Assembly (NCBI GenBank): GCA_025617745.1
Contig: CM046873.1
Span: 32,869,101 to 32,933,100, forward strand
Origin: Heliocidaris erythrogramma
Lineage: Eukaryota; Echinodermata; Echinoidea; Camarodonta; Echinometridae
DNA: 64,000 bases
Direction of reading: 5' to 3'
Position 1 is the first letter of the stretch; each line of letters begins with the position of its first letter. A program made the translations under genes and the position numbers. This document shows, one piece after another, positions 7,069 to 61,948 of this stretch. Under the pieces are notes generated by a model, which saw nothing but the letters and a program-made list of their open reading frames with translations, was not told the origin of the DNA and did not search any database.

Positions 7069-7075
7069 TATAAAA
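7069..7075 (+). promoter_or_regulatory. TATA box of the SRCR gene
   Basis: TATAAAA lies 95 bases before the ATG at 7164. A start site about 30 bases downstream (near 7100) would give a leader of roughly 60 nt. The position fits the signal-peptide exon well. No start-site data are available, so this is inference from spacing. Confidence 0.55.
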
Positions 7076-7163
7076 CCCTTTCGCTTTCAAGAATTCGCAA
7101 CACTTTCCACTGAAACATCATCACATCAACACATCAGTTCCTGGCTGAATTTCTTGTTGTACG

Positions 7164-7230
7164 ATGGAGGGCTACGCAATATTCTGGTTTCTTCTCTCCC
7201 TCACGTTGGCAAATGCCCAGACCAACTTGG
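7164..7230 (+). CDS. SRCR gene exon 1: signal peptide
   Basis: The exon codes MEGYAIFWFLLSLTLANAQT and then NL plus the first base of the next codon. It has a short N-terminal region, a hydrophobic core and a probable cleavage after ANA. The ATG has G at +4. The donor is TTGG|GTATGG, phase 1, and joins the D codon of the SRCR exon at 8004. It is the only ATG near the TATA box that leads into the SRCR frame. Confidence 0.8.
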
Positions 7231-10200
7231 GTATGGTTTAGTTTTAATTTATATGTTGTTGCACAGTCTTCTGTCTTTGTTATTGTTGCTTTAATTTCGT
7301 ATTGTGATCTATACATCATTGTCTGTACGACTGTAACAAAAAAATTGAAGAAAACTGGATAAAGATCCTACTTGGAGAAAATATTTATCCGCATTTATTT
7401 GTACAACAAAATTTGTGAGAGACACAATTTGTATTTCACTTTCAATAATCCCGTACAGACGGACAGAGAGACGTCGTCGGTTCGATCCCCGGCACGGCAC
7501 TTACATATATATCATTGAGTAAGGCATCTTATCTGCATTACCCCTCTGCACCGCGGTGTGAAGAGTACCGTCGGAATGATACAAAAGTCATTGTGGTTTA
7601 GCTCCACTTGTCAATGTTTTATGATATAACCAGATGTTGACAAAGTTAGGATATATCCTCGATGTATGGGGGATTTGTTGAAATTTTGCAATTTTGCGGA
7701 CACAAACATGCAAAAACACGCACGATCAGTTGTGACCATAGCATTACAAATATCCATAAATTTCTTTTGTGACTACTGAACCAACTCGGATACGGTTTTC
7801 ACCAAGATACAGATAATTAAATATTTTCATTATCTTAAGTATATTTCAATTCATTTATTTCACATCTCTTGAATAGTATAGAAACTAATATGAATCGGAA
7901 ATAACAAAACAATAACATGATTGTTATTGCATGTTTCTTTGAATGTTCATGCATGTTTATTTAGTAACAATACATTATTGTTATACATGTATATCCCTTT
8001 CAGATATTCGGCTAGCAGGAACGGGTAGCAACTACAGGCAAGGTCGCGTTGAGATCTTTTACAACGGACAATGGGGAACAGTGTGCGATGACAGTTGGGG
8101 GCTGAATGATGCTAACGTTGTCTGCAAACAGTTAGGCTATGCAGCAGGTGCTACTGAATACAAGGTAGAGGCCCAGACATTCGGCCAAGGCACGGGACGG
8201 ATCTGGCTCGACAACGTGGTTTGTACGGGCACCGAAACTAAAATCACGGACTGTCCGGCGAATGCAATTGGGACCCATAACTGCGGACACGACGAAGACG
8301 CGGGGGTCGTATGCGCAGGTCAGTGTCCATAATTTCAAGATAACAATAGTGATTTGATAGGAATAAAAAGAAAGTTTATTTTTATGTGAGGGAAATCCCA
8401 TAGTAGCAAAATCCATCGAGGATTGCCCTTTCAGTGCAGCTCACAAATTTATTTCAAAATTGATGACCGTAAAGTAGTTTAAAAGCAAATCCGGATGTTT
8501 ACAATGTTTCTGTATTTGTAAAATTTTAATGATTCCATTATCATTCGTATTAAATTTTATTGCATAACAATTCAAAATAACGTCCAGACACTCATTGGTA
8601 TGACCAATACTCGACACAAAGATACCCCCCCCCCCCCCACGTACTGTTCACAGCTATACAAATTAAGCGCAAAGCTTACATTTTCTAATCTCCTCCCCCG
8701 GCCGGCCTACTTTATAATTACCAATAAAACGATGTTAAATAACCTCGCTTTTAACGCCTAACATAGGTATATGTACATTTAAAGGAAAATCCAACCCGAT
8801 TTTGCTATTCTATGAAGCGTAACTTGCTGATTAATTTGATACCAAGTTTACCAAAATTGTACAGCTATGAAGAAAGTTATAGAATGTTTTAGATCTCGCC
8901 AAACACTACTTTCACCACCAGTCTGCTGCACATGGGGGCTGCCGTTTTCCACGAATGACTTATCTGTCATGACAACTGGCTAGTCTAGATTGTGTCAGTT
9001 TTTTAATTTTTTTATTTGGTTTATTCCCCTTGTTTCGATTGTACCCCCCCCCCCCTCCCCCTAGAACGAAAACCTTTAAAAAAAATTTTATTTGCTCTTC
9101 ATAATTATGGAGGGAAACTGAGCAAATTTTGGAGGTCTGGCGAAACCATTGTCACAACCCCTTACCCCCCCCCCCACGAGCGACTTTTTGAGAGCTGGCG
9201 AGACCCCAAAAATACAGGTCTCCACTTTCCAAAAGTTGACAAACCTGCATTTGTGTCCCCCCTATACAAAATTGTGGATCCGCCCATCGATATTACTCAT
9301 ATTTGTGAAAGAGGACGATATTTGCTTTCCGGTGCTATTAATCATGCCAGAGAAGGAGATTTGGCTAAGGGTCTAGGAATGGTTTGGTCTAAACGGGCAT
9401 TTCTATATTCGGCACATCTCCTAGAAATTACACTCGTCTAATGTATTAAAACTAGCAGAAGCAGCCCGTGGACATCCACGGGCGCTAGCTGTGTTTATGA
9501 TTAATCACCGTACCGTATATTTGTTACAATAATTAAGTGAATAAATAAAAGTCGGGTAAAGTTATTTTTACCAAGAAGTATTTACAACATGTCCATTGGC
9601 GGACCGGGGGGGGGGGGGGGTGCTTCTGGCCCGTGCCATCCCCACCCCCACCCCCCCCCCCCCCCCGTTCAATGGCAGGAAAGTATGTATTTTAACCATA
9701 GACATCCGCCCTTTTGTTGATTGTGCCCCCGCCCCCTTTTAGAATGAAACCTTTTTTTTGCTCGTCAGAATAAGCCAGTTCGGGGTTAGCGCATGGTACA
9801 AATGACCCCAAATATCCAGATATTTTAGACATGGAGGGTCCCTTTATGTGCACTTCAGAAAAATAACTCTGGGAGTGATAGAGGTGCCTCATGAATAGCT
9901 TTTGTTTCCCCCTTTAAAATGAATACTTCCACCTGGATATCATGGAATGCACCATTAGTGCATAATTGAATAATGATTACATGACATTCATGAGCACATA
10001 TCGAATATTAGTGTCAGTGGGTTTTAGAATTTTGGTACAGATGACCTTTATCTGCTCATGCTCAGATGGCAACCCCGAACTGGCTTATTATGGAGGGACC
10101 CCCATAACCGCCCCCTCCTGAGCGAATTTTCTAGGTCTGACGAAAAAAAAATTCTCGCCACCCCCCCCCCCCCGGTCTGCCTTTTCCAAAAGTTGACAAA

Positions 10201-13200: not shown

Positions 13201-16200
13201 TCTGCAGAAGGCTTCCTCGAAGGCGCCCATTCTTGCCTTTCACAAGCTTCGAGTTGGGTTCCTTGCACGCATTTTCATGTTATCCGTTATTTTCCTCTTA
13301 CTCCTGTACTATTAACCCATAGAATAATAAGTAATTTTTTTTGGAGGTTGATTTTACACTCTAGCTGTCCGTAATATTTTGTTTTTAAATTTTCTTAAAA
13401 TCGTTAATATCCCTCATCAGTTGGTATTCGGCTAGCAGGAACAGGTAGCAACGACAGGCAAGGTCGCGTCGAGATCTTTTACAACCGACAATGGGGAACA
13501 GTGTGCGATGACAGTTGGGGACTGAATGATGCCAACGTTGTCTGCAAACAGTTGGGCTATGCAGAGGGTGCTACTGAATACAAGGTACAGGCCCAGACTT
13601 TCGGCCAAGGCACTGGACAGATCTGGCTGGACAACGTAGTTTGTACGGGCACCGAAACTAAAATCACGGACTGTCCGGCGAATGCAATTGGGACCCATAA
13701 CTGCGGACACGACGAGGACGCGGGGGTCGTATGCGCAGGTCAGTGTCCATAATTTCAACAATATTAGTGATTTGATAAAAATAAGAAAATACTTTTTCTT
13801 TTTATTCCTATGTGGGGGATCTACCATAGTAGCAAAATCCATCGAGCATTATCCTTTCAGTGCAGCTCACATAATTCATTTTAAACATGATGACCGTAAA
13901 GTAGTTTAAAAGCAAATCCGCATGTGACATTTTTTTTGTACTACATTTATTTGTATAATTTCAATGATTTTAAAATCTTACAATACGTAATCATTCGCAT
14001 TTACTGCGTGACAACTTCAAATAACGTTCACCGCTATTACAAAGGCGCAGAGCATGATCGTTCCTATTTTCGAATCGCCAGACCCCCGCCTATTTACCAA
14101 GAAAATGAGATTAAATTCACTTTTTTTTTAAAGCGTAAATTAGATAAATGTAAATTTAAGGGATGCCCAATTTTAACGTTTCCAAGTAAAACAACCATAT
14201 TGAGGTTCTTTGACAATGAACATGATGAAATTAGTGTTTCAAGGTTCCAGCAACAAAATTATCAGTATAGGCCTAAGCATTATCTCCCAATTGGTTGACT
14301 TGTACATAATGTATTGTAACAACTGGTGTAGCGTAAACCTGTGACAATGTGCACGTTAACATAATTTTAATGAAAATTTATCTTTTTGAACGTTCATATT
14401 CCACAGGCACGCAAACAGGTGAGATGATTTTCCTTTTGACGCACTTCTAATACCATGAACAGTCTTTCTATACCATGTATACACCATACACCAGGAATAT
14501 ACAAGAACAAAGCTATCGGGGGCGGCGATTTCTTGTCATGGTTGGGGGGGGGGGGGGAAACCAGCGATGGAGAGGGTCTATGACGGTTAAGGCCCCACCG
14601 CCCCCCCCCCCAAAAAAAAAAAAAAAAGAACGGGCACAGAATTTTGCACTCTGTAATTAAAAAGCTTTTGCATCCTGGCGTATTCCTGAGTAAATATATT
14701 TTACAATAAATTGATGCCTACATATTACAGACATGCCAACTAATACGGATTCCTCACCCAGTTTCGCTCCTATTACACTTGATAAGGGGGTACCAACATC
14801 TATGGATGTCTGAAATTAATTTGGAACACAGCATTACCATAATGCACCGCACCTGTCTACTCGAACAACCTTTTGTTATCCACTGGCATTAACTATTTAT
14901 GGCTATGGTTAAAATAACTGTTCTGAATTTTTGCCTGTGATACACAATGCCATACCCCTTATCAACCGTAAAAGGTGAGGAATACGATTTTAGGTTGGCA
15001 GCACTGCATATTATGCTAGTTGACACAAACTACGACACCACCGAAAAACTTTAAAGTGGCATTCGCGCTGCCCCACCCCGCTATGCCACATTCCCATAGT
15101 CACCTGCGCGAACGCACTCCCGCCATCTTCCTCTTTTCATTCTCGCTGCCGATGAATTAACAGTCATTGTGGGGAACAAGATGATTTCGGTGCAACTGGT
15201 CTCATCTGCGCACCATTCCCCATATCAATGTCCTAGAGATGCTGGCGGCCTTGTCCTCTGCCATTTCAGACACATAATAGACTCAAATTAATGAATAAAC
15301 TACAATACTTGAAATCCAGTTTGCATACATTACTTGTTGCTATATCTGACAAGCCTCTGGCAAGCTTTCAGGTTGTCAAGAACATGTTTATTTAGTAACA
15401 ACGCATGATTGTTATCAAGGCCGTACGCGGGGGGGGGGGGGGGGCCATGGGGGCAGTTGCCCCCCCCCCAGAAATTTCAAAATCATACTTTTTTTTAATC
15501 GGGTTTTAGACTTTTAAATGATCCAATAATAAAAAGCGATCATCTTGCCCCCCCCCCGGAAAAAATTTCTGCGTACGGCCTTGATTGTTATACATGTATA
15601 TCCCTTTCAGATATTCGGCTAGCAGGAACAGGTAGCAACAACATGCAAGGACGCGTTGAAATCCTTTACAACGGAAAATGGGGAACAGTGTGCGATGACA
15701 GTTGGGGGCTGAATGATGCTAACGTTGTCTGCAAACAGTTGGGCTATGCAGATGGTGCTACTGAATACAAATTACGGGCCCAGACTTTCGGCCAAGGCAC
15801 TGGACAGATCTGGCTGGACAACGTGGTTTGTACGGGCACCGAAACTAAAATTACGGACTGTCCGGCGAATCCAATTGGGACCCATAACTGCGGACACGAC
15901 GAGGACGCGGGGGTCGTATGCGCAGGTCAGTGTCCATAATTTCAAGATAATATTAGTGATTTGCTAAAAATGAAAAGAATTATCTACTTTCTATTTATTC
16001 CCATGTGGGGGAAAATACCATATAGTAAATCCATCAGGATTGCCCTTTCAGTGCGAGTTGCTTTCCTTACACGCATTTTCATGTTATCCGTTATTTTCAT
16101 CTTTTACTACAACCCATAAAATATTAAGTAAATTTTGAGATTGATTTTATTCTCGAGCTGTACGTACACGAAATATATTTTGTTTTGATTTTACATTTTA

Positions 16201-19200
16201 TTAAAATCGTTAATATCCCTCTCAGTTGGTATTCGGCTAGCAGGAACAGGTAGCAACGACAGGCAAGGTCGCGTCGAGATATTTTACAACCGACAATGGG
16301 GAACAGTGTGTGATGACAGTTGGGGACTGAATGATGCCAACGTTGTCTGCAAACAGTTGGGCTATGCAGCGGGTGCTACTGAATACAAGGTACAGGCCCA
16401 GACTTTCGGCCAAGGCACTGGACAGATCTGGCTCGACAACGTGGTTTGTACGGGCACCGAAACTAAAATCACGGACTGTCCGGCGAATCCAATTGGGACC
16501 CATAACTGCGGACACGACGAGGACGCGGGGGTCGTATGCGCAGGTCAGTGTCCATAATTTCAACAGAATATTAGTGATTTGATAGGAATAAAAAGGTAGT
16601 TTCTTATTTTTATGTGGGGGAAATAATTACCCTTTCAGTGCAGCTCACATAATTAATTTCAAACATGATGACCGTAAAGTAGTTTAAAATCAAATCCGCA
16701 TTTGACATTTTTTTTGTAGTACATGTATAATTTTAATGATTTTAAAATCTCACACTACGTAATCAACTCCAAATAATCCACACACCGTACTCAACAAACT
16801 TTGAGACGACCTCACCCGTGATGTTCACCGCTATACAAAGGCACAAAACATGATCGTGTTTTTCGAATCACCAGACCCCCGCCTATTTACCAAGAAAATG
16901 AGACTTAACTTTTTTTAACGCGTAAATTGGGTGAATGTGAATTTAATGGATGTCAGGTAAAGCAACCATATTGAGGTTCTTTGACAATGAACATGATGAA
17001 ATTAGTGTATTCAAGGTTCCAGCATAAATTATCAGTATAGGTCTAAGCATTATCTCCCAATTGCATGACTTGTACATAATGTATTGTAACAACTGGTGTA
17101 GTGCAAACCTGTGACAATATTATACTCATGTTAAATTTTAATAGAAATATCTATTCAACGTTCATATTCCAAAGGCACGCAAACAGGCGACATGGTTTTA
17201 TTTTTACATTTAAGTGTTCCTCCCCTTCAACCCGTCTCAAACATCAACCACCACATAAAAAATTGTAGCACAAAAAGAATTTACGTACAACTAAAACAGT
17301 CCCCCCCCCCAAAAAAAAAAAAAAACAACAACAAATGTTCAAAGTTCAATTTAGGAATGCCATGCTTACATAACTTCGGACTCCCTAGAGCCGAACTGTC
17401 ACACATAAGAGACAAAATATTACGGGTACCTGAATGATCGCCACGACCGCCCCACCACAATATTGTATTGCAGCTTTACTTTTAAACTAATTTTCACCTG
17501 GAATATCACATTGAACACATTAACAAAATGTGCTTCAGGCGACCAGACATATTCATGATTTGTCTCTAAATCATTTGATATTACTATTCTTCACAATTCA
17601 ATTGCATTTCCAGAATACAAGTAAATGAAACGTTACTTTCTAAATCTCGGAAGTAAATACGAAGCAACTTTTACTCTGCAATGCAGAAATATCCATAGCA
17701 ACCGTCAAACGTGTCGGAACAACTTGCAACGACAGTTCGTATCGAGACTAATTTTCACGAGTGGGGAATAGTCACTATGAACACGATGACAAAAAAGCGG
17801 ATAAAATATACAGCTCATTGAACCCTCCACAATTGTTCTGGTAGACAAAAGAACATCCCTTAATTGCTATTATGTAAAATAAGTAGAACTGAATATGCAT
17901 GTGACACCTGTTCTACATATATTTATATAATAGCAATGAAGAGATGTTCTATTATCTACCGGAGAAAGTGTGGAAGGTACAATGAGGAGCTGTATATTTT
18001 GTTCGCCATGTGAGTAGTGAGCTTTCGAATGTGTGCACTCAACGCCGTCCAGGATTTTCCGCATACCGTGCTTTGTGCAAGAACGGCTCACCCATCCACT
18101 GGCTTCTCCCTCGTCGATCCCTCAACTAGTCAGATCGAGAAGGCGTCACAAATGGCTTTGCCGCCTTCTCTAAAACGTGAACCACCTTCACCCTTAGTTA
18201 GCTTCATGCTTCACCTGTATGCAGTCAACACAAAACGGTTATCGCTCGGAGGATCTACGACGGCGTTCTAGTTGACACATCCGAAAACGCCTCGGTGTGC
18301 TATAGGTGCGAGAGGATCATTGTGACACTAATGTATTCTGCAGACAGTTAGGCTACCAAGAAGGCGCCCATTCTTGCCTCACACAGGCTTCGAGTTGCTT
18401 TCCTTACACGCATTTTCATGTTATCCGTTATTTTCCTCTTAATCCTTTACTGTTAACCCATAGAATAATAAGGTTGATTTTACACTCTAGCTGTACATAC
18501 ACAATATATTTTGTTTCGATTTTTACATTTTATTAAAATCGTTAATATCCCCCTCAGCCGGTATTCGGCTAGCAGGAACAGGTAGCAACGACAGGCAAGG
18601 TCGCGTCGAGATCTTTTACAACGGACAATGGGGAACAGTGTGTGATGACAGTTGGGGGCTGAATGATGCTAACGTTGTCTGCAAACAGTTGGGGTATGCG
18701 GAGGGTGCTACTGAATACAAGGTAGAGGCCCAGACTTTCGGCCAAGGCACTGGACAGATCTGGCTCGACAACGTGGTTTGTACGGGCACCGAAACTAAAA
18801 TCACGGACTGTCCGGCGAATGCAATTGGGACCCATAACTGCGGACACGACGAAGACGCGGGGGTCGTATGCGCAGGTCAGTGTCCATAACTTCAAGAGAA
18901 TATTGATTTGATAAAAATAAGAAACTTTTTCTTATTCCTATGTGAGGGAAATCCCCTAGTAGCAAAATCCATCGAGGATTGCCCTTTCAGTGCAGCTCAC
19001 ATAAATTCATTTCAAAATTGATGACCGTAAACTAGTTTAAAAGCAAATCTGGATGTTTACAATGTTTCTGTATTTGTATAATTTTAATGATTCCATTATC
19101 ATTCGTATTAAATTTTATTGCATAACAATTCAAAATAACGTCCAGACACTCATTAGTATGACCAATACTCGACACAAAGATACCCGCCCACGTTCTGTTC

Positions 19201-22200
19201 ACAGCTACACAAATTAAGCGCAAAGCTTACATTTTCTAATCTCCTCCCCGGCCGCGTCTTTTTTTTGTAACCAAGCCTAGGCAGATTTCGCATTTTTTCA
19301 TACTAATACGGTTTATTCCGTCAAGACTAATCTTCATGAATATTCATGAAACGAATTATACCGATATAATAAAACGAGCAAGAGCATCGAGCAGCTGTTC
19401 TGTGTGGCGCAATCGGATAATCCTGTCCTCTCTTGGCGAAGGAACCACGAGTTGGAACCTCGGCAGAAGTTTATATTACGAAATTTTCTTTTGCTTATTT
19501 AAAAATAAGGTGACTGAGTAAGAAAATACAAGTCCGATACTTGTAGTCTGTTTCAAAGTCATCAAAAAGGGGTTTCTGCCTAGGCTTGGTTACAAAAAAG
19601 ACACCCCCGGCCGGCCTACTTTATAATTACCAATAAAACGATGTTAAATAACCTCGCTTTTAACGCCTTACATAGGTATATGTACATTTAAAGGAAAATC
19701 CAACCCGATTTTTCTGTTCTATGAAGCGTAACTTGCTGATTAATTTGATACCAAGTTTACCAAAATTGTACAGCTATGAAGAAAGTTAGAGAATGTGTTA
19801 GATCTCGCCAAACACTACTTTCACCACCAGTCTGCTGCACATGGGGGCTGCCATTTTCCACGAATGACTTATCTGTCATGACAACTGGCTAGTCTAGATT
19901 GTGTCAGTTTTTTAATTTTTTTTATTTGGTTTTCCCCAACGCTGCTTTCTCTCTACATGCACATCCCACACGGGCGCAACTCGTAATCGCACTATCCCCA
20001 AAATTATCACCCGGAGGGTGGAATTGCAAAGTACTTGTTCGGATCGCGCGATATGGAGACACAAAATTCGGGGCAAGTTCTATAACGTTTCTCTCTGAAT
20101 ACTTTTCTTTGAAGATTGCTCTGAACATTTAGATCTTTCACTTTGTTAAAGCGAGGCCACACACCAGTAATTCAAACCACAACAATTGCCATTGTGTTGC
20201 AGATGAAATTCCAGAACACCTTTTTTAACCCATAGTCATGAATCCTTAATCACACTGGACCCCAAAAGGTTGGATAAACGACAGCTGCAAAACACACAAT
20301 GTCAATTGTGTTCTGAATTATACGAAAGATTTTGTTGCCTTGATTTAAAAAAAAAATGAAAAAAATCTTAATCGAGCAATTTTTAAAGAAAAGTATCCAG
20401 AAATTAACTTGCTCCCGAACAATTTTATATCCTTCAACTTTACAATGCTAAAACCTCTGTCGGATAGATGTATGTGTAAAAGTTTTTTGAGCTAGTGTGG
20501 AGAGTCGCGCTTTGCGTGGGATAGGCGTGTAGAGAAAGTGCAGGGTAGGGGAATAAACCAAAACAAGAATCTGGACTAGGAATTGTCCACGTAATACACC
20601 ATTCGTGGACTAAGTCCACTGCAAACATGGAAAATGGCGGCCCCCATGCATGTGCAGCAGACGATGGGCGAGAGACGGGTTTGGTATCGTCATTAACTTT
20701 CTTCATAGCTGTCCAATTCTACTTTGGGATTAAATTAACCAGCAAGTTACGCTTCATATAACATCAATAGAAAGAAATAAGGTTGGATTTTAAGGGATGC
20801 CCAATTCTAGCATTTCCAGGTAAGCTGTAGCTTCATGGTAAAACAATATTGAAAGTTCTTTGAATTAGTGTTTCAAGGTTTCCAGAAACAATCGTATGCC
20901 TAACCAGGAACCATTTGGCATGATCAGTGGCGGATTTAGAGGGGGGGGGGGGGGTTGGCACATCCGGCCTGTACCCCCCCCTAGAACGAAAACCTTTTTA
21001 AAATCTTGTTTGCTCTTCATAAATATGGAGGGAAACTGAACAAATTTTGGAGGTCTGGCGAAACCATTGTTACAACCCCTTACCCCCTCCCCCCCCCCCC
21101 CCACAAGCGACTTTTTGAGAGCTGGCGAGACCCCAAAAATACAAGTCTCCATTTTCCAAAAGTTGACAACCCTGCATTTGTGTCCCAACCCCCATACAAA
21201 ATTGTGGATCCGCCCATCGATATTAGTCATATTTGAGAAAGAGAACGATATTTGCTTTCCGGTGCTATTAATCATGCCAGAGAAAGAGATTTGGCTAAGG
21301 GTCTAGGAATCGTTTGGTCAAAACGGGCATTTCTATATTCGACACATCTCCTTGAAATTACACTAGTCTTAATGTATTCAAATATATCAAGTGTAGGTAA
21401 TGGTAATGGCAGGGAAACTTCCCATTCCCAATGGCTCATATTACTGTGTTTATGGTGTGGCGAGAATATTCCACGACTCAAGAGGTCTACATCCTAATCT
21501 ATGCTTCCTAAGCATCAGAGGTGACCCCCTGCCTCCGGGGGCACAGTGCCCCCACTTTTTTCAAGTACCCCAAAAGTGCCCCTTTACTATGAAAAGTGCC
21601 CTTTTACCTTCTGATAAATGCCCTATATACATGTATATAGTTAATATATTGTACCTATATACTTCGATGTCGCTTACAAACTGTGCCCTATAAAGTCCAC
21701 AAAAGAGCCACATAGGCCTACGTAGCTCCAAATCAGGCTTCATAAGACTCCCCTACTAATATCAGCACAATAAAAGGCAGTGCAGCAGGCACAATTACCA
21801 AAGTTAAATATACTAGAATAACCAGTGCCCCTAAATCATAACAGGAAGAACATTTTTTTTTTCATATCCAAGTCATAGCTTTTACCCACAAAAAATCGCT
21901 TTTCGACATCTTTTTTATATTGCTTTAAATCTTTACGTTACTAACGAAACCCCGAAATCAAGAAAAGGATGAATTTCCAAAAGTTTCATTATAGAAAATG
22001 TGTTAATTTTGGGCGACGCGGGGAGGGGGTCGACATTTTTTTTCGGCAGACCTCCAACATTCTCAGTGGGGGTATGAGTGTTCCAGTTTCCCTCCATAAT
22101 TCCCTCCATAATTCCCTGACAAGCAAAAACATCTTCATTCTAAAAGGGGCACAATAGAGAAAATGGCGGGTCGTCTATGGTCAAAATGCATACTTTTCTT

Positions 22201-25200
22201 CAGATAGGGGGCACGGCCCGGATGTACCCCCTGGATCCGCCAATGGACCCAACGACGATGCAACGCATTGTCCACAAGCCGCCGCATAGCGGCGAGCCGA
22301 TTTTTTTCGCTATTTTGAACCCCCATTAGTGAGGTTTTCCCGGCATCTACTAACGCAATGGAGACCATAAAAAGCAGTCCTGTGATATAGGAACGTACTG
22401 TATGGGTCTGGACATGAAGGCGTTTTTCTATGCACATTAAATTTTTACTTTACAGCCCAAGGGGGTTAAATCCCCTACCCCCCCCCCCCCCCCGTAGATA
22501 CGCCACGGGAGGTCGTGTCGAAGTGACCCTTCGAATATGCGGACTGAACGCCGTCCTAGATTTTCTGCATACCGCGCTGTGTGCAAGAACGGCTCACCCG
22601 TCCACTGGCTTCTCCCTTGTCCATTGCCGTCTTCTCTAAAACGTGAATCTCCACCCATTGTTAGCTTCATGCTTCACCTACTTTGTATGCAGTCAACACA
22701 AACGGTCAGTTGTCGCTGGGAGGATCTAGGACGGTGTTCTAGTCACGTCTGAAAACTCCTTAATGCGCTATAAGTGCAAAAGGATCCTTGTGACGCCAAT
22801 GTAGTCTGCAGAAGGCTTCCTCGAAGGCGCCCATTCTTGCCTTTCACAAGCTTCGAGTTGGGTTCCTTGCACGCATTTTCATGTTATCCGTTATTTTCCT
22901 ATTACTCCTTTACTGTTAACCCATAGAATATTAAGTAATTTTTTTTGGAGGTTGATTTTACACTCTAGCTGTCCATAATTTTTTTTTTTGACTTTATTAA
23001 AATCGTTAATATCCCTCATCAGTTGGTATTCGGCTAGCAGGAACAGGTAGCAACGACAGGCAAGGTCGCGTCGAGATCTTTTACAACCGACAATGGGGAA
23101 CAGTGTGCGATGACAGTTGGGGACTGAATGATGCCAACGTTGTCTGCAAACAGTTGGGCTATGCAGAGGGAGCTACTGAATACAAGGTACAGGCCCAGAC
23201 TTTCGGCCAAGGCACTGGACAGATCTGGCTGGACAACGTAGTTTGTACGGGCACCGAAACTGAAATCACAGACTGTCCGGCGAATGCAATTGGGACCCAT
23301 AACTGCGGACACGACGAGGACGCGGGGGTCGTATGCGCAGGTCAGTGTCCATAATTTCAACAGAACATTAGTGATTTGATAAAAATAAACCTACTTTTTC
23401 TTTTTAATCCTATGTGGGGGAAATACCATAGTAGCAAAATCCATCGAGCATTACCCTTTCAGTGCAGCTCACATAATTCATTTCAAACTTAATGACCGTA
23501 AGGTAGTTTAAAAGCAAATCCGCATGTGACATTTTTTGTAGTACATATATTTGAATAATTTCAATGATTTTAAAATCTCACAATACGTAATCATTCGCAT
23601 TTAATGCGTGACAACTCCAAATAACGTTCACCGCTATTACAAAGGCGCAGAGCATGATCGTTTCCCCATTTTCGAATCGCCAGACCCCCGCCTATTTACC
23701 AAGAAAATGAGATTAAATTCACTTTTTAGCTCACCTGAGCCTATGGCTCGAGTAAGCTATTGCGATGGAAATTCGTCCGTCGTGCGTCGTCCGTTAACTT
23801 TTTACCTTTTCATCTTCTCCAAAACCATGATCAGAATTCAACCAAACTTGGTAGGAATCATCCTTAGGGGTAGGGGACCCAAAATTGCTAAAATGATACA
23901 TGTGGCCCCCAGGGGGAAGGCCCCCCAATTGTAAAAGCTATGTAAATTTCAAACATCTTCTTCTCCAGAACCAGGCACAGCTCAGACTTGGTATTGTGTA
24001 TGGAGATTTTTTTTTCTGGGTGGCCCTATAGGGGGTCTGTGGGTAACATACTGGAGGGGGGGGGGGGGGGGTGGGCAAGGTGTCCGCCATCCATAAACTT
24101 TTTACATTTTCAGCTTCTCCAAAACCCATGATTGGAATTTAACCGAACTTGGTAGGAAGCTCAGACTTGGTATTGTGTATAGAGATACCTCTATAGATGA
24201 AGAATGAAAGTTGTTCATGTGCTAGAGAGAACATGCACCAGATGTGAATTGATCCACCTAGGGTGAGCGTCGTGCCCCCTGGGGCTCTTTTTTTTTTAAG
24301 CGTAAATTAGATAAATGTAAATTTAAGGGATGCCCAATTTTAACGTTTCCAAGTAAAACAACCATATTGAGGTTATTTGACAATGAACATGATGAAATTA
24401 GTGTTTCAAGGTTCCAGCAACAAAATTATCAGTATAGACCTAAGCATTATCTCCCAATTGGTTGACTTGTACATAATGTATTGTAACAACTGGTGTAGCG
24501 TAAACCTGTGACAATGTGCACGTTAACATAATTTTAATAAATTTATCTTTTTGAACGTTCATATTCCACAGGCACGCAAACAGGTGAGATGATTTTCCTT
24601 TTGACGCACTTCTAATACCATGAACATAGTCTTTCTATACCATGTATACACCATACACCAGGAATATATTTTGTGAATTATGATATACAAGAACAAAGCT
24701 ATCGGGGGCGGCGATTTCTTGTCTTGGTTGGGGGGGGGGGGGCAAACCAGCGATTGAGGGGAAGAGGGTCTATGACGGTTAAGGCCCCACCGCCCCCCCC
24801 CCCCAAAAAAAAAAAAAAAACAACAAAAAAAAAAACGCACAGAATTTTGCACAATGTAATTAAAAAGCTTTTGCATCCTGGCGTATTCCTGAGTAAATAT
24901 ATTTGACAATATATTGATGTCTACATATTCTAGTTAACACAACTACGACACCAGCGAAAAAGTCGCATAGTCACCTGCGCGAACGCACTCCCGCCATCTT
25001 CCTCTTTTCATTCTCGCTGCCGATGAATTAACAGTCATTGTGGGGAACGAGATGATTTCGGTGGAACTGGTCTCATCTGCGCACCATTCCCCATATCAAT
25101 GTGCTGGAGATGCTGGCGGCCTTGTCGCTCTGCCATTTCAGACACATAATAAACTCAAATTAATGAATAAACTACAATACTTGGAATCCAGTTTGCATAC

Positions 25201-27694
25201 ATTACTTGTTGCTATATCTGACAAGCCTCTGGCAAGCTTTCAGGTTGTCAAGAACATGTTTATTTAGTAACAACGCATGATTGTTATACATGTATATCCA
25301 TTTCAGATATTCGGCTAGCAGGAACAGGTAGCAACAACATGCAAGGACGCGTTGAAATCTTTTACAACAGAAAATGGGGAACAGTGTGCGATGACAGTTG
25401 GGGACTAAATGATGCTAACGTTGTCTGCAAACAGTTGGGGTATGCAGATGGTGCTACTGAATACAAATTACGGGCCCAGACTTTCGGCCAAGGCACTGGA
25501 CAGATCTGGCTCGACAACGTGGTTTGTACGGGCACCGAAACTAGAATTACGGACTGTCCGGCGAATCCAATTGGGACCCATAACTGCGGACACGACGAGG
25601 ACGCGGGGGTCGTATGCGCAGGTCAGTGTCCATAATTTCAAAATAATAGTGATTTGCTAAAAATAAAGAATTATCTACTTTCTATTTATTCCGATGTGGG
25701 GGAAATACCATGCATAGTAGCAAAATCCATCGAGGATTGGCCCTTAAGTGCAGCTCACATTCAAAATTGACCATGTCATACAATCGTATAATTGACACCG
25801 CTTTTGTCAGTTACGGCTATATAAAGTTATTATTTCTAGGGTAAACATACTACAGTATATTTCATTGATATAAGCAATAGTGTAATTTTTTAAAAATAAA
25901 TTCTCATCCGACTGTTCCTTTTCCCCTTTTTCCCTTTTTTGAATCTCATTTTCACAGGTAGTAGCACAGGTAAGATACTTTCAATACACATAAATACATA
26001 AACCAAACAGTAAAACATCGCGATAAATGAAGACATAAACAGAGTGCACTTCATACTTCCATATCTCTTTTACGCAGAGGTAGAAGTGACGTCAGTGGTC
26101 TTAAACACTGTCTGGAAATGGAAAGGTCGTGGGTTTGATCCCCGGCACTAATGTCCTTGAGCAAGGCATCTAATCGACATTGCTCCTCTCCACTGCTTCT
26201 ATCCACCTTGGTGTAAATAGGATGCGAAAGTCATTCAGTACGATTTTAAAAGGCGCCTGGCTGGAATGATCCCAAGGGTGGAGAAGTTGTATACACTGAT
26301 TGCAGGCAAGCCAGAATCCGATAACTGAAGTAATATCTGTAAAGCGCTTAACAGCAAAGGAATAAGGGGATTTATAAAGCCAGAATAGCACTATTGTCAT
26401 TAAATTAAAATAATTTTCCTTCATTGGACTTTTGCACACAGCTCCGTTTTTACCATCACTTAAAATTCATTTACTCGCATAATATTTTTAAATTCTCTTT
26501 GTATTTTATTAATACATGTAAGTGAGAATAATTAAAGCATTTTCATGTTTTAAAGGCCCCGCGTACTATAATCTACACAAAATTAATGAAAGAGCACTAC
26601 GAAGTGTCATCGGATTTTGCTTTTTTTTTAAATTTTACCTTGTCATGCATAAACGGAGCTAATATAAAGTGTGGCAATTAAAGCGGTCGGAACGAGTGAT
26701 AACAGTCTTATTCGGATTATACATGTATCCGCCAGGTTGTATATTGTTTTACTAGATTTAACTGGTACACAGGGGCGGATTGGAGTTTCCCCCAGGCCGA
26801 CGAGGGTCAATTGATAGTTGAATGGAACGGTAACATAAAAATTCCCCTACTGAATTTCAGTCTTCACCCACCCCTGCATGTCGTACATAATTTATTTCCA
26901 TTTTACTGGTGAAGGCAATACGCTGCATGATCTACATGTAATATACTACGTAATTAATACAGACTTTTTCCATGCCAAAGCCCTGTGAAATGCAATTCCA
27001 TTTAACAAAACTATAAAACCATCTTACCATCAAAATTTTCCTGGGGTGTAGAAAATAAAGAATTGTTTTCTCTTTCTATAATGTATTCAGGAAAGCGTGA
27101 AGAGAAAGACTACGAGCTTTATTACAAGAGAGAAGAAGTGGTAAGGAGTTTCATTAAATCTGATAAATATGGGTTTAAAAAAATAATACATTGTGAAATT
27201 GGCAGGACATAACATCCAAACTGCATTGCCAACCACTACACAAGCTTTGCTTTCTATATAGCCTTCTGTCTATAGATTAAGGTCAATATTTATACATGAT
27301 GTAATTTATTTTTCATTAATTTTTATTCTTAACATAGGCATCCTTGTTGGTACACATTATGTTATACGAAACTGTATATATATTTCGTATTACTGTTGAA
27401 ACAGAACAAATCAAACTCGTGAAAAAGTACATTGCTTTACACAATTATAGAGTGACGGTAAGATTCCTCTTTGATTTCGTCCAAGATTTTAGGTAACATC
27501 CGTTTTGGAATTGACGTAAATTGGTAATTGATATCGTCATGGAAGTAATACTGTAACATTTTCCGGGTTGTGCAAAGATTAATGGTTTTTTTTTTTTACT
27601 TATTTGTTACCAACAGGGTGCTGATGAAGTCTCTAAGAAGAAAAAGGTCCTTAGTGCTCTGGCTGAACTCCTTGCAAAACTTGAGAACAAATAG
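7164..27694 (+). CDS. Secreted multi-domain SRCR (scavenger receptor cysteine-rich) protein, spliced
   Basis: Predicted exons: 7164-7230, 8004-8318, 13421-13738, 14407-14418, 15611-15925, 16226-16543, 18558-18875, 23023-23340, 24572-24583, 25307-25621, 25958-25969, 27091-27140 and 27617-27694. All junctions have AG acceptors and GT donors and all but the last are phase 1. The sum is 2448 nt, 815 residues. Order: signal peptide, seven SRCR domains of about 105 residues, three four-residue linkers from 12-nt exons, then a Lys/Glu-rich tail of about 42 residues that could form a helix. There is no transmembrane segment, so the product should be secreted. SRCR domains bind ligands in innate immunity and adhesion; the ligand here is unknown. 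Each domain has six cysteines. Exons and introns are nearly identical between repeats, pointing to recent tandem expansion or gene conversion, and also making assembly error possible. Some exons may be skipped without frame change. Confidence 0.82.
7430..7625 (+). mobile_element. tRNA-derived SINE, partial, in intron 1
   Basis: The Pol III B box GGTTCGATCCC is at 7479-7489, followed by CCGGCAC and a body resembling the other SINEs here (GAGTAAGGCATCTTATCTGCATT). It is short compared with the copies at 26.1 and 47.3 kb. The ends were not defined. Confidence 0.55.
8004..8318 (+). CDS. SRCR exon 2 (domain 1, 315-nt type)
   Basis: Acceptor CCCTTTCAG and donor GCAG|GTCAGT. It codes a full SRCR domain starting IRLAGTGSNYRQGRVEI, with six cysteines in TVCDDSW, VVCKQL, VVCTG, TDCPA, HNCGH and VVCAG. 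It is the only copy with Y at the SNYRQ position and with GRIW instead of GQIW. Both ends are phase 1. Confidence 0.88.
8779..9032. mobile_element. TTAA element, left arm only (copy A)
   Basis: TTAAAGGAAAATCCAACCCG and the following 250 bp match the left inverted repeat of the complete element at 19688-20793. The interior and right arm are absent here, and the arm runs into a fragment of the GGATCCGCCC family. Confidence 0.6.
9035..9290. mobile_element. GGATCCGCCC-family MITE fragment (copy A)
   Basis: Matches 20950-21216: CTAGAACGAAAACC, poly-C tracts, CCAAAAGTTGACAAACCTGC, and the right end TGTGGATCCGCCCATCG. The left terminus seen in the partner copy (CAGTGGCGGATTTAGAG) is missing here. 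Confidence 0.55.
9593..10248. mobile_element. GGATCCGCCC-family MITE, interrupted by a nested element
   Basis: The left end is CCATTGGCGGACC with a G run and the right end CTGGATCCGCCCCTG. The right part repeats CCAAAAGTTGACAAACCTGC, as in the copies at 9.2 and 21.1 kb. A second inverted-repeat element occupies about 9771-10087. Bases 10249-10631 are AT-rich and then C-rich, with no gene seen. Confidence 0.5.
9771..10087. mobile_element. Nested MITE with AAGCCAGTTCGGGG inverted ends
   Basis: AAGCCAGTTCGGGGTT at the left and AACCCCGAACTGGCTT at the right are exact inverted repeats, with GGTACAAATGACC and GGTACAGATGACC also shared. The sister copy at 9.09 kb runs uninterrupted through the matching site. 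Confidence 0.6.
10632..12205 (+). mobile_element. 5'-truncated DIRS-type retroelement
   Basis: It begins inside the RNase H region (PVASYIPG, NLIADFLS), continues with a tyrosine recombinase, and ends with the DIRS layout. An internal complementary region (about 11865-11945) is inverse to the right terminal repeat (about 12140-12205, ending near GATTTTACT). The matching site in the duplicated copy near 21.66 kb lacks it. A G run sits at 12061-12082. Confidence 0.7.
10851..11864 (+). CDS. DIRS tyrosine recombinase, open frame of 337 codons
   Basis: The frame codes a DIRS1-family integrase that would use site-specific recombination to insert circular cDNA. An N-terminal core-binding part (DLYNSRLGAFSWC, STSTIRGYRSAI) precedes the catalytic part. 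Visible catalytic residues are the Arg in ASAQRSTLHAL (about residue 140), HDTR in PRAHDTRGISASW (about residue 263) and the Tyr in FTSFYLKD (about residue 298). The RT and most of RNase H are missing upstream, so the element cannot move on its own. The start is the first ATG of the open frame; in the second DIRS here the same domain begins a few residues earlier. Intact catalytic residues suggest this copy is fairly young. Confidence 0.8.
   Translation: MRSRRDSTRDLYNSRLGAFSWCENQGVSPREAPIGVIADFLISLFDKGRSTSTIRGYRSAIAAVHVGFADGSGVSNSPLLARLTRSFLQRPSTRSPTPSWNLPKVLDVLAKPPFEPLGKASLHHLTVKTLFLVAIASAQRSTLHALCITPGHIRWENHGVRLIPKPSFIAKNQTASSGPVEIFLRPLSDHSSVQEDKVWCPVRALKWYLDKTKTLRKSDQLFVITREPFSPASRESISRWIVEAIQAAGPEALLSDGKPRAHDTRGISASWALFQGVPLVDIMRAAYWRSSTSFTSFYLKDVLSSLFLIRRCKLQRHPWVPVDLPLGTCPPFQSVLV
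12905..13255 (+). pseudogene. Broken SRCR exon (copy A) carrying a foldback-MITE remnant
   Basis: GGTCGTGTCGAAGT codes GRVEV. Later TGTGACGCCAATGTAGTCTGCAG codes CDANVVC, a typical SRCR core, and CGAAGGCGCCCATTC codes EGAHS. Between them lies about 170 bp related to the foldback MITE at 3027-3342 (GTGCAAGAACGGCTCAC, CTTTGTATGCAGTCAACACA). Stops and frame changes exclude coding. Confidence 0.6.
13421..13738 (+). CDS. SRCR exon 3 (domain 2, 318-nt type)
   Basis: Acceptor CCCTCATCAG, donor GCAG|GTCAGT, phase 1-1. It codes VGIRLAGTGSNDRQGRVEI, with NRQW, YAEGATEYKVQAQ and PANAI variants. The 318-nt type has one extra codon at the start relative to the 315-nt type and a different upstream intron end (ATCGTTAATATCC). 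Confidence 0.88.
14407..14418 (+). CDS. 12-nt microexon (linker GTQT) between domains 2 and 3
   Basis: ATTCCACAG|GCACGCAAACAG|GTGAGATG. With phase 1 on both sides it adds four residues and joins the upstream CAG to DIRLAG of the next exon. The same block occurs at 24572-24583 and, with a damaged donor, at 17175-17186. A related exon (GTAGTAGCACAG) is at 25958. No transcript data support it, so it is a sequence-based prediction. Confidence 0.6.
15416..15583. mobile_element. 168-bp hAT-like MITE with 8-bp target duplication
   Basis: The ends are CAAGGCCGTACGC and its inverse GCGTACGGCCTTG. ATTGTTAT lies on both sides (15408-15415 and 15584-15591). The duplicated locus at about 25275-25290 reads GCATGATTGTTATACATG with no insert, so it preserves the empty site. 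An 8-bp duplication fits the hAT group. It contains long G and C runs and no coding sequence. Confidence 0.85.
15611..15925 (+). CDS. SRCR exon 4 (domain 3, 315-nt type)
   Basis: Acceptor CCCTTTCAG, donor GCAG|GTCAGT, phase 1-1. It codes IRLAGTGSNNMQGRVEILYN with GKW, YADGATEYKLRAQ and PANPI. It is closest to exon 25307-25621. The intron after it is only 300 bp. Confidence 0.88.
16226..16543 (+). CDS. SRCR exon 5 (domain 4, 318-nt type)
   Basis: Acceptor CCCTCTCAG, donor GCAG|GTCAGT, phase 1-1. It codes VGIRLAG with SNDRQ, NRQW, YAAGATEYKVQAQ and PANPI. The preceding 300-bp intron looks like a recombination join between two intron types. Confidence 0.88.
17175..17186 (+). pseudogene. Microexon relic with GC in place of the GT donor
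   Basis: ATTCCAAAG|GCACGCAAACAG|GCGACATG is the counterpart of the microexons at 14407 and 24572. The donor GT has become GC and the following bases fit a donor poorly, so it is probably skipped. Because the exon is 12 nt and phase 1-1, skipping keeps the frame. Confidence 0.55.
17773..18019. mobile_element. Foldback MITE, copy 2
   Basis: Same palindrome as 6335-6582, with CACTATGAACACGATGAC on the left arm, ATTGCTATTATGTAAAATAAG near the centre, and GAAAGTGTGGAAGGTACAATG on the right arm. The right end is shortened where it meets the broken SRCR exon. Confidence 0.7.
18010..18395 (+). pseudogene. Broken SRCR exon (third copy)
   Basis: It contains the best-preserved remnant: REDHCDTNVFCRQLGYQEGA is an unmistakable SRCR core, clearly different in sequence from the seven working domains. 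The upstream part again carries the foldback-MITE-related block. No usable acceptor leads into the core in frame. Confidence 0.6.
18558..18875 (+). CDS. SRCR exon 6 (domain 5, 318-nt type)
   Basis: Acceptor CCCCCTCAG, donor GCAG|GTCAGT, phase 1-1. It codes AGIRLAGTGSNDRQ, NGQW, YAEGATEYKVEAQ and PANAI. It mixes features of exon 2 (NGQW, KVEAQ) with the 318-nt start, suggesting gene conversion. Confidence 0.88.
19256..19602. mobile_element. 347-bp inverted-repeat element containing a tRNA-like sequence
   Basis: The left end is GTCTTTTTTTTGTAACCAAG then CCTAGGCAGA; the right end is its inverse, TCTGCCTAGG then CTTGGTTACAAAAAAGAC. The uninterrupted site in copy A (8690-8705, CTCCCCCGGCCGGCC) shows an insertion with about 8 bp of flanking duplication (CCCGGCCG). 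Inside lies a 71-nt tRNA-like block. Confidence 0.75.
19398..19468 (+). tRNA. tRNA-like sequence (probably not a working tRNA)
   Basis: TGGCGCAATCGG (19405-19416) is an A-box match and AGTTGGAACCT (19450-19460) a B-box match. CGAG-TTGGAAC-CTCG gives a T-arm with a seven-base loop, and TTCTG pairs with CAGAA as part of an acceptor stem. The anticodon arm pairs poorly, so I cannot name an anticodon. It may be a Pol III promoter captured by the element. Confidence 0.45.
19688..20793. mobile_element. TTAA-flanked element with about 250-bp inverted repeats (complete copy)
   Basis: Left end TTAAAGGAAAATCCAACCCG; right end, reversed, TTAAAATCCAACCTTATTTC. The arms share GAAGCGTAACTTGCTG, CAGCTATGAAGAAAGTTA and the CATGGGGGC...GCCATTTTCC motif. 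The interior (19930-20540) has no recognisable transposase. Copy A retains only the left arm. Confidence 0.7.
20925..21216. mobile_element. GGATCCGCCC-family MITE, complete copy
   Basis: Left end CAGTGGCGGATTTAGAG plus a G run; right end TGTGGATCCGCCCATCG, an imperfect inverse. About 290 bp, non-coding, C-rich. Confidence 0.6.
22509..22859 (+). pseudogene. Broken SRCR exon (copy B)
   Basis: Nearly identical to 12905-13255, so the breakage came before the segmental duplication or was homogenised afterwards. Confidence 0.6.
23023..23340 (+). CDS. SRCR exon 7 (domain 6, 318-nt type)
   Basis: Acceptor CCCTCATCAG, donor GCAG|GTCAGT, phase 1-1. It codes VGIRLAG, SNDRQ, NRQW, YAEGATEYKVQAQ, PANAI, and uniquely ETEITDC where the others have ETKI or ETRI. 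Paralogue of exon 13421-13738. Confidence 0.88.
23728..24287. mobile_element. 560-bp insertion of an AGCTCACCTGAGC-type repeat
   Basis: Copy A has an uninterrupted T run at 14120-14130. Copy B has this block inserted there, beginning AGCTCACCTGAGCCTATGGC and ending GGGGCTC. The block includes internal repeats of CTTCTCCAAAACC-ATGAT and AACTTGGTAGGAA. The family is unidentified; inverted ends were not seen. Confidence 0.6.
24572..24583 (+). CDS. 12-nt microexon (linker GTQT) between domains 6 and 7
   Basis: ATTCCACAG|GCACGCAAACAG|GTGAGATG, identical to the one at 14407. Phase 1-1. Confidence 0.6.
25307..25621 (+). CDS. SRCR exon 8 (domain 7, 315-nt type)
   Basis: Acceptor CCATTTCAG, donor GCAG|GTCAGT, phase 1-1. 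It codes IRLAGTGSNNMQGRVEIFYN, RKW, YADGATEYKLRAQ, ETRITDC, PANPI. Paralogue of exon 15611-15925 and the last SRCR domain. Confidence 0.88.
25958..25969 (+). CDS. 12-nt microexon (linker GSST) after the last SRCR domain
   Basis: CATTTTCACAG|GTAGTAGCACAG|GTAAGATA: strong acceptor and donor, phase 1-1. It resembles the GTQT microexons but has its own sequence and probably joins domain 7 to the tail exon at 27091. Confidence 0.55.
26085..26420 (+). mobile_element. tRNA-derived SINE in the last large intron
   Basis: B box GGTTTGATCCC at 26132-26142, then CCTTGAGCAAGGCATCTAATCGACATT, and a 3' body with AGCGCTTAACAGC. The body is shared with the SINE at 47.3 kb. Bases 26421-27090 show no further exon; a CAGGGGCGGATTGG repeat end lies near 26767. 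Confidence 0.6.
27091..27140 (+). CDS. SRCR gene tail exon (charged)
   Basis: ATGTATTCAG|GAAAGCG ... GAAGTG|GTAAGG. It codes KREEKDYELYYKREEV after the shared Gly codon and moves the phase from 1 to 0. It is rich in Lys, Glu and Tyr. Confidence 0.65.
27617..27694 (+). CDS. SRCR gene last exon and stop
   Basis: TTACCAACAG|GGTGCTGATG, ending ...LENK then TAG at 27692-27694. The 25 residues include VLSALAELLAKLENK, an amphipathic helix candidate. No membrane anchor follows. Confidence 0.65.
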   Translation, partial: GADEVSKKKKVLSALAELLAKLENK

Positions 27695-27713
27695 AGGACA
27701 ATATGGCTTACGA

Positions 27714-27719
27714 ATTAAA
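27714..27719 (+). terminator. Possible poly(A) signal ATTAAA
   Basis: ATTAAA lies 20 nt after the stop, followed by a GT-rich stretch (GGTTGGGTTATGTT). It is a variant signal and would make a very short 3' UTR. Confidence 0.35.
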
Positions 27720-27966
27720 TAAGGTTGGGTTATGTTAAAGTGATTTGCGAGATTCCTCCTTTTCACTTCATTTTGGGAAAATATCGGAAAAATGTATAAA
27801 GTATTCTTCAAATACCCTCGTATTCGAAATACAGGAAGTAGCCAAAAGCTTTAACTGTCATGCGACATGTTTATGTGCAGTCCCATATACAAATGAATGC
27901 ATTGCATGTGACTTTACCAAGATGATTCAATTTCGTATCATTTCAAAAGACGGTTGGCGTCCCGGT

Positions 27967-27999
<33 letters not shown>

Positions 28000-28018
28000 G
28001 GGGGGGGGGGGGGAGGGG
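27967..28018 (+). repeat. Poly-G tract of about 52 bases
   Basis: Almost pure G with two A interruptions. Bases 27720-28465 otherwise hold no gene I can support. Confidence 0.8.
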
Positions 28019-28465
28019 TGGGTGTTGGGCATAATTTTTCCAAATATTCTCAAATGCTGACTAGCTTTATAACATGGATGGGTTTTCTCCTTATCCTTTA
28101 TAGGAAGTTATTTGTGTTTTAAAGAATTTATTATGGTGTTATATTTACTTTCAATTTGACTAATTATGCTTTTGAAGTTTATAATAACCGGACGTGCGTA
28201 ACTGTATTCACAAGGTCTTTAATTAAAATCATTCTTGCACTCAGAAAAAAAATGTGTAGTTTAATTTTTGCTTGGGATATATAGCGAATCGATATATGCA
28301 AATGCTCATTGATTAATGTACACGGGCATTTTATAAAAGATTGAAACAAGTGGGTGAGCATTGGTGTGCAGTAATTCTTAAGTCTCGTTTCGCTGACTAT
28401 ACTGCGTGAGATTTCACCCCGCCTATAAGCTAACTGCACATTAAAGAATTATGGACAAAAGTCTG

Positions 28466-28640
28466 ATTTACTGCAATAAATCATATATACCTACCTATTA
28501 TGCCTGTAGTCTTGACTACGGGACCCCTTCGAGAATTTAACACACATGCGTCACAATATTGTGCGCACCCCCCGTAATCCTATTGTCCTCGCCACTCACG
28601 CGCGCCAACACGCTACGGCCATCTTCCTCTTTCTTGCTCG
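28466..28640 (+). repeat. DIRS left inverted terminal repeat
   Basis: It contains GCCTGTAGTCTTGACTACGG, CACAATATTGTGCGCACC and GCGCCAACACGCTACGGCCA, all present in inverse in the right repeat. Confidence 0.85.
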
Positions 28641-29046
28641 CCCCCGACGAGATAGGACGTATAGTCACAGCGCTCCTGAAATCAGGTCGTATAGTATCTT
28701 TTAGGTGCGCTTTTTCACATAGTTAAAGCACTTTTAGGTACCTATATTCGTTTAGATTATAGTACTTTGTGTTTTATTAGTCACTCTTGCCGATTGCAAG
28801 GGATTTTTGATTCCCTTTCTTGGCATTTTTGTTTCTCTTTTACGGTCAGCCCCACGTAGATATTTCTGTGTTTGCGGGTGTTTCCGTTTGTCACCGAGCC
28901 TTCGGGTTCGGTGTTTGTTCTTACGGTTTAGGCTGTAAAAATTTCTGTTGCGCGTATCTCCCAAATAAACTTTAGTTTAGTTTCTGCATTCGGTTGAAGT
29001 ATTTCTTAATTTGAAAAGTATACTTTATTGTCTGTTTTATTGCAGA

Positions 29047-30471: not shown

Positions 30472-30534
30472 GGTTCGACTTCGCGTTGGTTTAAGCAGCG
30501 GGATTTCTGCTGAGTCTGGGCGCCTTGGCGTCCG

Positions 30535-31500: not shown

Positions 31501-31659
31501 GGGTTCGTCTTTGCTTGGGTTCAGGCAGCGGGCGGACGAGACGGTTTCTTCATAGTTCTGTCCGCCCCGCTCCCCGGAGGTGCTATAGGAACTCGGACAC
31601 CTCACAGGCTGTCCTTTTTCCCTTCCTCCGACTTTTGTTATTCCCAGGCGCTCGGGAAA

Positions 31660-34263: not shown

Positions 34264-34270
34264 GTCTTTA

Positions 34271-36111: not shown

Positions 36112-36113
36112 AT

Positions 36114-61940: not shown

Positions 61941-61948
61941 ATGTGTGC

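What the first reader, a model, noticed from the sequence alone, without database searches (positions are those of the whole stretch)
13421..25969. Symmetric 12-nt microexons between SRCR domain exons
Three sites with good splice signals enclose exactly 12 nt (14407, 24572, 25958), all phase 1-1, like the SRCR exons. Each would add four Ser/Thr/Gln/Gly-type residues between domains. Including or skipping them never changes frame, so the gene could tune inter-domain spacing by splicing. I know of no standard description of such linkers in this family.
Basis: partly seen in the sequence, partly recalled or inferred. Interest (0 to 1): 0.75.

Follow-up and report, generated by a model that had tools for sequence, protein, structure and literature searches.

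The report
Tiny linker exons between SRCR domains
An animal gene that encodes a row of scavenger-receptor domains seems to carry two kinds of 12-base exon that would put four flexible residues after a domain; the splice signals look better than chance, but no RNA evidence was available, and similar short linkers are already known in other receptors.

Summary
But 14407 and 24572 are copies of one site in a local duplication, so there are two independent cases. The site at 25958 follows the last SRCR exon found. A copy at 17175-17186 keeps all 12 bases but has lost its donor (GT to GC).
In the SRCR introns these are the only stop-free phase-1 exons up to 60 nt passing A>=4, D>=7.5. Their donors are clearly, the acceptor of 14407/24572 barely, above those of all seven SRCR exons. 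Two exact 12-nt cases are unlikely by chance (P 0.0003), any 3n length less so (P 0.022); a plain consensus gives a weak excess. A difference-free patch round the site is not decisive: a longer one lies elsewhere.
Most likely these are real microexons, mostly included, coding short linkers. Tuning by splicing is untested; strong sites lean against it, the thymine-poor acceptor of 14407 leans for it. PTPdelta meB is a functional precedent. No RNA data.

The parts
8004..8318 (+). SRCR exon a, phase 1-1
13421..13738 (+). SRCR exon b, phase 1-1
14407..14418 (+). 12-nt candidate microexon GCACGCAAACAG (GTQT) between exons b and c; acceptor 6.47, donor 11.43, AG-free zone 73 nt
15611..15925 (+). SRCR exon c, phase 1-1, starts ATATTCGG
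16226..16543 (+). SRCR exon d, phase 1-1
17175..17186 (+). degraded copy of the 12-nt block after exon d: 12 of 12 core bases kept, donor GCGAC instead of GTGAG, acceptor CAAAG instead of CACAG
18558..18875 (+). SRCR exon a', phase 1-1
23023..23340 (+). SRCR exon b' (duplicate of b)
24572..24583 (+). duplicate copy of the 14407 candidate microexon, between exons b' and c'
25307..25621 (+). SRCR exon c' (duplicate of c)
25958..25969 (+). independent 12-nt candidate microexon GTAGTAGCACAG (GSST); acceptor 9.78, donor 11.14, AG-free zone 75 nt; after the last SRCR exon found in the window
27091..27140 (+). possible next exon (50 nt, can be entered in phase 1, KREEKDYELYYKREEV); uncertain, AG-free zone only 28 nt

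Best explanation
The 12-nt blocks are real symmetric microexons of a multi-SRCR receptor gene, included in most transcripts. Each adds four flexible, Ser/Thr/Gly-type residues: GTQT between SRCR domains b and c, copied along with them to b' and c', and GSST after the last SRCR domain found. In the b-c junction the insert lengthens the stretch between the last cysteine and the next IRL from 2 to 6 residues, so it would act as a passive spacer setting the distance and angle between two neighbouring domains. Shown: sites, phase, frame, duplication, one degraded copy. Inferred: splicing, inclusion level, spacer role.
For: In the introns from 8318 to 27091, 3 stop-free phase-1 3n candidates of at most 60 nt pass A>=4 and D>=7.5, and they are these three. 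With A>=6.4 and D>=11.1, exons of 3-30 nt: 4 on the + strand (these three plus one in a transmembrane ORF), 0 on the - strand; first-order Markov mean 0.175 (40 simulations), third-order 0.15 with no 12-nt case in 60 simulations. Donors 11.43/11.43/11.14 against 9.18 in all 7 SRCR exons; acceptors 6.47/6.47/9.78 against 4.19-6.42, so the first is ahead by a hair only. AG-free zones of 73, 71 and 75 nt, at the top of the range of the 7 SRCR exons (37-72); of 323 acceptors with A>=6.4 on both strands (the three sites and some SRCR exons included) 10.2% have 70 or more. All 21 SRCR exon pairs have dN/dS 0.07-0.31, so the host gene looks alive. Within 100 nt of the block the duplicate introns differ at 0 of 210 sites, against 45 of 1148 elsewhere; the degraded copy differs from the first copy more near the block than elsewhere (28 of 131 against 57 of 505).
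Against: No RNA evidence at all. Two independent cases only. Plain consensus excess is weak. For any 3n length up to 30, P is 0.022. From the real site counts 0.72 pairs of 3-30 nt would be expected on the + strand at the strong thresholds. At relaxed thresholds (A>=4, D>=9, 3-60 nt) there are 10 pairs on the + strand and 3 on the - strand; 7 of 10 and 1 of 3 also have an AG-free zone of 37 or more, and three of those outside the gene have 79-96 nt, so that zone alone does not single the blocks out. The frozen patch is not specific: a longer one (373 nt, 12924-13296) lies in an intron where the scan gave no candidate, so gene conversion may explain both. The half width of 100 nt was one of five tried. 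One of three copies of the first block has degraded splice sites, so the block seems dispensable at that junction. The acceptor of 14407/24572 is thymine-poor close to the exon, unlike human constitutive micro-exons. Matrices recalled, thresholds set after seeing the sites.
Confidence: 0.55

Rival explanations
1. The microexons are real and alternatively spliced, so that the animal tunes SRCR spacing in different cells or after challenge.
For: Symmetric 12-nt exons allow it without a frame change. The b-c junction without the insert is as short as the shortest of 8 CD163 junctions, and with it equals two of them (worked by hand from the alignment coordinates), so both forms look tolerable. Optional four-residue linkers are known in PTPdelta. 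The acceptor of 14407/24572 is thymine-poor at -20 to -5 (0.38), a trait of alternative micro-exons in human data. Sea urchin SRCR transcript repertoires change after challenge (PMC1988830, passage); that the window is from an echinoderm is not tested.
Against: Strong splice sites are typical of constitutive micro-exons (PMC4317164, passages). No TGCATG within 300 nt and no TGC within 40 nt upstream of the acceptor.
Confidence: 0.2
2. The blocks are chance pairs of splice-like signals and are never spliced in as exons.
For: Plain-consensus excess is weak. Other short pairs at relaxed thresholds are probably false: 11433 in a recombinase-like ORF, 30609 in an open frame, 63216 in a transmembrane ORF, 58659 near a reverse-transcriptase-like ORF. 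One copy has degraded sites.
Against: Two unrelated sites of the same length, right strand, right gene, no stop, donors stronger than those of the SRCR exons, and long AG-free zones.
Confidence: 0.2
3. The sites are recursive-splicing points: the intron is removed in steps and no 12 nt remain in the mRNA.
For: Each block ends in CAG|GTRAG, and at 25958 the block itself begins with GT, so a donor CAG|GTAGTA (score 5.04) would be rebuilt after joining. Annotated recursive exons are frequent in deuterostomes (PMC6224609, abstract and passages).
Against: Acceptor scores at the zero-length points are low (2.23 and 3.90) and the rebuilt donors are weak (2.92 and 5.04). The b-c and b'-c' introns are under 2 kb, where stepwise removal is not needed.
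Confidence: 0.05

Closest known systems
meB mini-exon of PTPdelta and other type-IIa receptor phosphatases (PMC4423211, abstract, passages and tables)
   Same: Four residues at a domain junction; acts as an adjustable linker; a GSSG tetrapeptide works as well as the native ELRE, so length matters more than sequence, as would be expected of GTQT and GSST.
   Different: Ig domains, not SRCR; optional use is described there and untested here; no common origin is claimed.
Interdomain exon of CD163 and WC1 (PMC2906472, passages)
   Same: SRCR receptor genes with an extra exon coding sequence between SRCR domains.
   Different: The one long spacer of CD163 (40 steps in my hand count; that it is the interdomain exon is inferred) is far longer than four residues; the passages seen do not call it a microexon.
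SRCR interspersed domains (SIDs) of DMBT1 (PMC3100851, passages)
   Same: Ser/Thr-rich spacers between successive SRCR domains of a tandem array.
   Different: 20-24 residues and between each of the tandem SRCR domains; here four residues and at selected junctions only.
Schistosome micro-exon genes (PMC4350168, passages)
   Same: Small symmetric exons that allow closely similar proteins by splicing, in genes at a host-parasite interface.
   Different: There most of the coding region is small exons; here the coding sequence found is almost all in 315-318-nt SRCR exons.
Constitutive micro-exons of human brain transcripts (PMC4317164, passages)
   Same: Short exons with stronger splice sites than long exons.
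   Different: Defined there by RNA-seq; here by sequence only. The high thymine content next to the acceptor is seen at 25958 (0.56) but not at 14407/24572 (0.38).

Membership tests
SRCR domain (PF00530) | match above the Pfam gathering score | tested here: met
   exons a, b and c' (3 of 7 exons given): 118.2, 115.9, 117.3 bits against a cut-off of 26.1; the other four are 91-97% identical to c' in protein
SRCR group B | eight cysteines per domain | tested here: not met
   six invariant cysteines in 7 of 7 exons (C27, C40, C73, C83, C93, C103); definition from PMC3100851
SRCR group B | domain encoded by a single exon | tested here: met
   each of 7 domains is one 315-318-nt open segment with splice signals at both ends; not checked against RNA
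SRCR group A | six cysteines per domain, encoded by two exons (PMC3100851) | tested here: inconclusive
   cysteine number met in 7 of 7, two-exon coding not met
Microexon | exon under 15 nt (definition as quoted in PMC6224609) with functional splice sites | tested here: inconclusive
   length and signals met; splicing not seen
Microexon | presence in mature mRNA | not testable with these tools
   no transcript data held for this genome
Alternatively spliced linker (meB-like function) | two isoforms with and without the insert | not testable with these tools
   needs RNA data
Schistosome-type micro-exon gene | most of the coding region made of small symmetric exons | tested here: not met
   7 large SRCR exons, 3 candidate microexons

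The most novel reading that the evidence does not exclude
A tandem SRCR receptor uses optional 12-nt exons at chosen domain junctions as a spacing code: cells or individuals make arrays whose domains sit closer or farther apart and so bind different ligands, and duplication followed by decay of the splice sites fixes the choice junction by junction.
Probability: 0.15. Interest if true: 0.65.

Novelty: new variant of a known kind. Interest (0 to 1): 0.38.

Why it matters
Exons this short are easily missed by gene predictors and aligners, so SRCR gene models, which are numerous in echinoderms, may lack junction residues. If the inserts are optional, they give a cheap and testable handle on how multi-domain pattern receptors set domain geometry. 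If constitutive, it is a small correction to gene models and an example of how linkers are gained and lost with domain duplication.

Tried and rejected
Constraint from the duplicate introns: at first persuasive (0 of 210 differences near the block; longest difference-free run of the b-c intron), then weakened by a control over ten duplicate blocks, where a longer run (373 nt at 12924-13296) was found in an intron in which one search gave no candidate exon. I keep it as compatible, not as proof.

AG-free zone: supports the sites at the strong threshold, but at relaxed thresholds several pairs outside the gene have long zones too.

Recursive splicing: scored and found weak. Two known microexon regulator motifs (TGCATG, TGC near the acceptor): none.

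Relatives elsewhere: the viral-contig scan gave no relative. The search of the window's own assembly did not complete. Rfam (gathering) and tRNA scans empty. Structure prediction of one SRCR exon gave a poor model (pLDDT 49.4); not used.

Literature: SRCR + microexon, 0 papers. The SRCR term with micro-exon, mini-exon, small exon or linker exon, at least two of five terms: 44 papers; the 12 listed do not hold the SRCR term, the other 32 were not seen. SRCR term + small exons, 1 paper, on T-cell receptor loci (listing and start of abstract). Searches were read as listings. The library is the open part of the literature only.

Full report
What is there. The + strand between 8 and 26 kb holds seven SRCR exons, which I name a, b, c, d, a', b', c' (coordinates in parts). 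All are phase 1-1, 315 or 318 nt long, and end CAG|GTCAGT. Pfam calls the three that I submitted (a, b, c') SRCR. The other six are 90-97% identical to c' in protein, and all 21 pairs have dN/dS between 0.07 and 0.31, so the array looks like a living gene. I did not recognise either end of the gene; exon candidates were listed for 1-8010, 25600-34800 and 60000-64000 only. Remnants of decayed SRCR exons also occur.

The 12-nt blocks. CACAG|GCACGCAAACAG|GTGAG occurs at 14407-14418 (between b and c) and, letter for letter, at 24572-24583 (between b' and c'); TTTTCACAG|GTAGTAGCACAG|GTAAGA at 25958-25969 follows c'. Self-comparison shows that the first two sit in a duplicated block: 14120-14726 matches 24287-24929 at 91.6%, and neighbouring pieces match at 94.6-97.5%. 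They are therefore one event. A third copy of that intron follows exon d; its block at 17175-17186 keeps 12 of 12 core bases but reads CAAAG...GCGAC at its borders, with donor score 1.09 and acceptor 3.04 and an AG-free zone of 28 nt.

Chance. I scored acceptors and donors with matrices recalled from memory (human-like). With thresholds at the sites' own level, exons of 3-30 nt number 4 on the + strand and 0 on the - strand; simulated sequence gives 0.175 (first order, 40 runs) or 0.15 (third order, 60 runs) per strand. From the real site counts, without simulation, 0.72 pairs would be expected on the + strand. Collapsing the duplicate, circular shifts give P=0.00029 for two exact 12-nt cases and P=0.022 for two cases of any multiple of three up to 30 nt. 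At relaxed thresholds the + strand has 7 short pairs, four of them 12 nt, and the - strand 2; the four other + pairs lie in a recombinase-like ORF (11433), an open frame (30609), near a reverse-transcriptase-like ORF (58659, the fourth 12-nt pair) and in a transmembrane ORF (63216), so false pairs do occur. A plain consensus search gives only a weak excess. In the introns from 8318 to 27091 the three blocks are the only stop-free phase-1 3n candidates up to 60 nt.

Two further features fit real exons. First, the blocks have better donors than all seven SRCR exons (11.1-11.4 against 9.18) and acceptors above theirs, by a hair for 14407/24572 (6.47 against at most 6.42), clearly for 25958 (9.78). 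Strong sites are expected of constitutive micro-exons in human data (PMC4317164, passages). Against this, the same data show high thymine content next to the acceptor of constitutive micro-exons; here it is 0.56 at 25958 and only 0.38 at 14407/24572. Second, the AG-free zone upstream is 73, 71 and 75 nt; the seven SRCR exons have 37-72, and 10.2% of 323 acceptors with A>=6.4 on both strands, these sites included, reach 70. The zone lies mostly outside the 20 nt that the matrix scores. But among all pairs of 3-60 nt at relaxed thresholds, 7 of 10 on the + strand and 1 of 3 on the - strand have zones of 37 or more, so the zone does not separate the blocks by itself.

Evolution. The duplicate b-c introns differ at 45 of 1358 aligned sites, but at 0 of 210 within 100 nt of the block (one-sided Fisher 0.00045; five widths were tried, P 0.0005-0.08). 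The longest difference-free run of that intron, 14272-14537, is centred on the block; under random scatter of the differences, 1.8% of trials have an empty 210-column window anywhere. The copy with degraded sites differs from the first copy more near the block (28 of 131) than elsewhere (57 of 505), and from the second copy at 96 of 638 sites overall. This would suit selection on a used exon. But a control over ten duplicate blocks (139 of 3959 differences) shows a longer difference-free run, 373 nt at 12924-13296, in a stretch where one search gave no candidate exon. Gene conversion could make both, so I give this little weight.

What it would do. Joined in frame, the b-c junction reads VCA-D-IRL without and VCA-GTQT-D-IRL with the block: 2 against 6 residues between the last cysteine and IRL; the other junctions have 3. 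From the alignment of one window domain with the nine SRCR domains of human CD163, I counted by hand the steps from the end of one domain to a fixed point in the next: 11, 11, 12, 9, 9, 40, 10 and 7 for its eight junctions (the last two from coordinates only, their alignments were cut), against 7 for b-c without the block, 11 with it, and 8 for the other junctions. Either form is within the known range. The best reading is a passive spacer. The closest working precedent is meB of PTPdelta: four residues between Ig2 and Ig3 that act as an adjustable linker, and that GSSG can replace (PMC4423211, abstract, passages and tables).

What is not shown. Splicing, the inclusion level, the exon after 25969, the ends of the gene, and the species. 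The 50-nt candidate at 27091-27140 is in phase but its AG-free zone is short (28 nt).

Noticed in passing
18324-18395, and by homology about 12918-13420 and 22522-23022: Decayed SRCR exon remnants upstream of exons a', b and b'; the one at 18324-18395 was hit by tblastn (DTNVFCRQLGYQEGAHSCLTQASS), the others match that stretch in the self-comparison: a sign of birth and death of SRCR exons in this array.
   Followed up: partly
12924-13296: A 373-nt stretch with no difference between the two duplicate copies, longer than the one round the microexon; gene conversion or an unknown constrained element.
   Followed up: partly
34780-39610: Non-LTR retrotransposon: a first ORF with no Pfam match (zinc knuckles by eye), then endonuclease, reverse transcriptase and RNase H.
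   Followed up: partly
10800-11861: Tyrosine-recombinase-like ORF inside the a-b intron (Pfam Phage_integrase, below its cut-off), possibly a DIRS-type element (the DIRS label is recalled).
   Followed up: no
63088-63360: Short ORF with one apparent membrane-spanning stretch and a very strong donor at 63239; weak TMEM154 match below its cut-off. May belong to another gene.
   Followed up: partly
5330-5985 and 50979-51633: Two copies of a stretch about 650 nt long, 45.6 kb apart, with 95-98% identity over the matched pieces.
   Followed up: no
42390-43084: Three tandem copies of a 231-nt unit, two of them identical.
   Followed up: no
SRCR exons (8004-25621): Six cysteines per domain as in group A, but one exon per domain as in group B (definitions from PMC3100851). 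Passages of a sea cucumber genome preprint (PMC13228809) also place most SRCR domains of that species in group A.
   Followed up: partly
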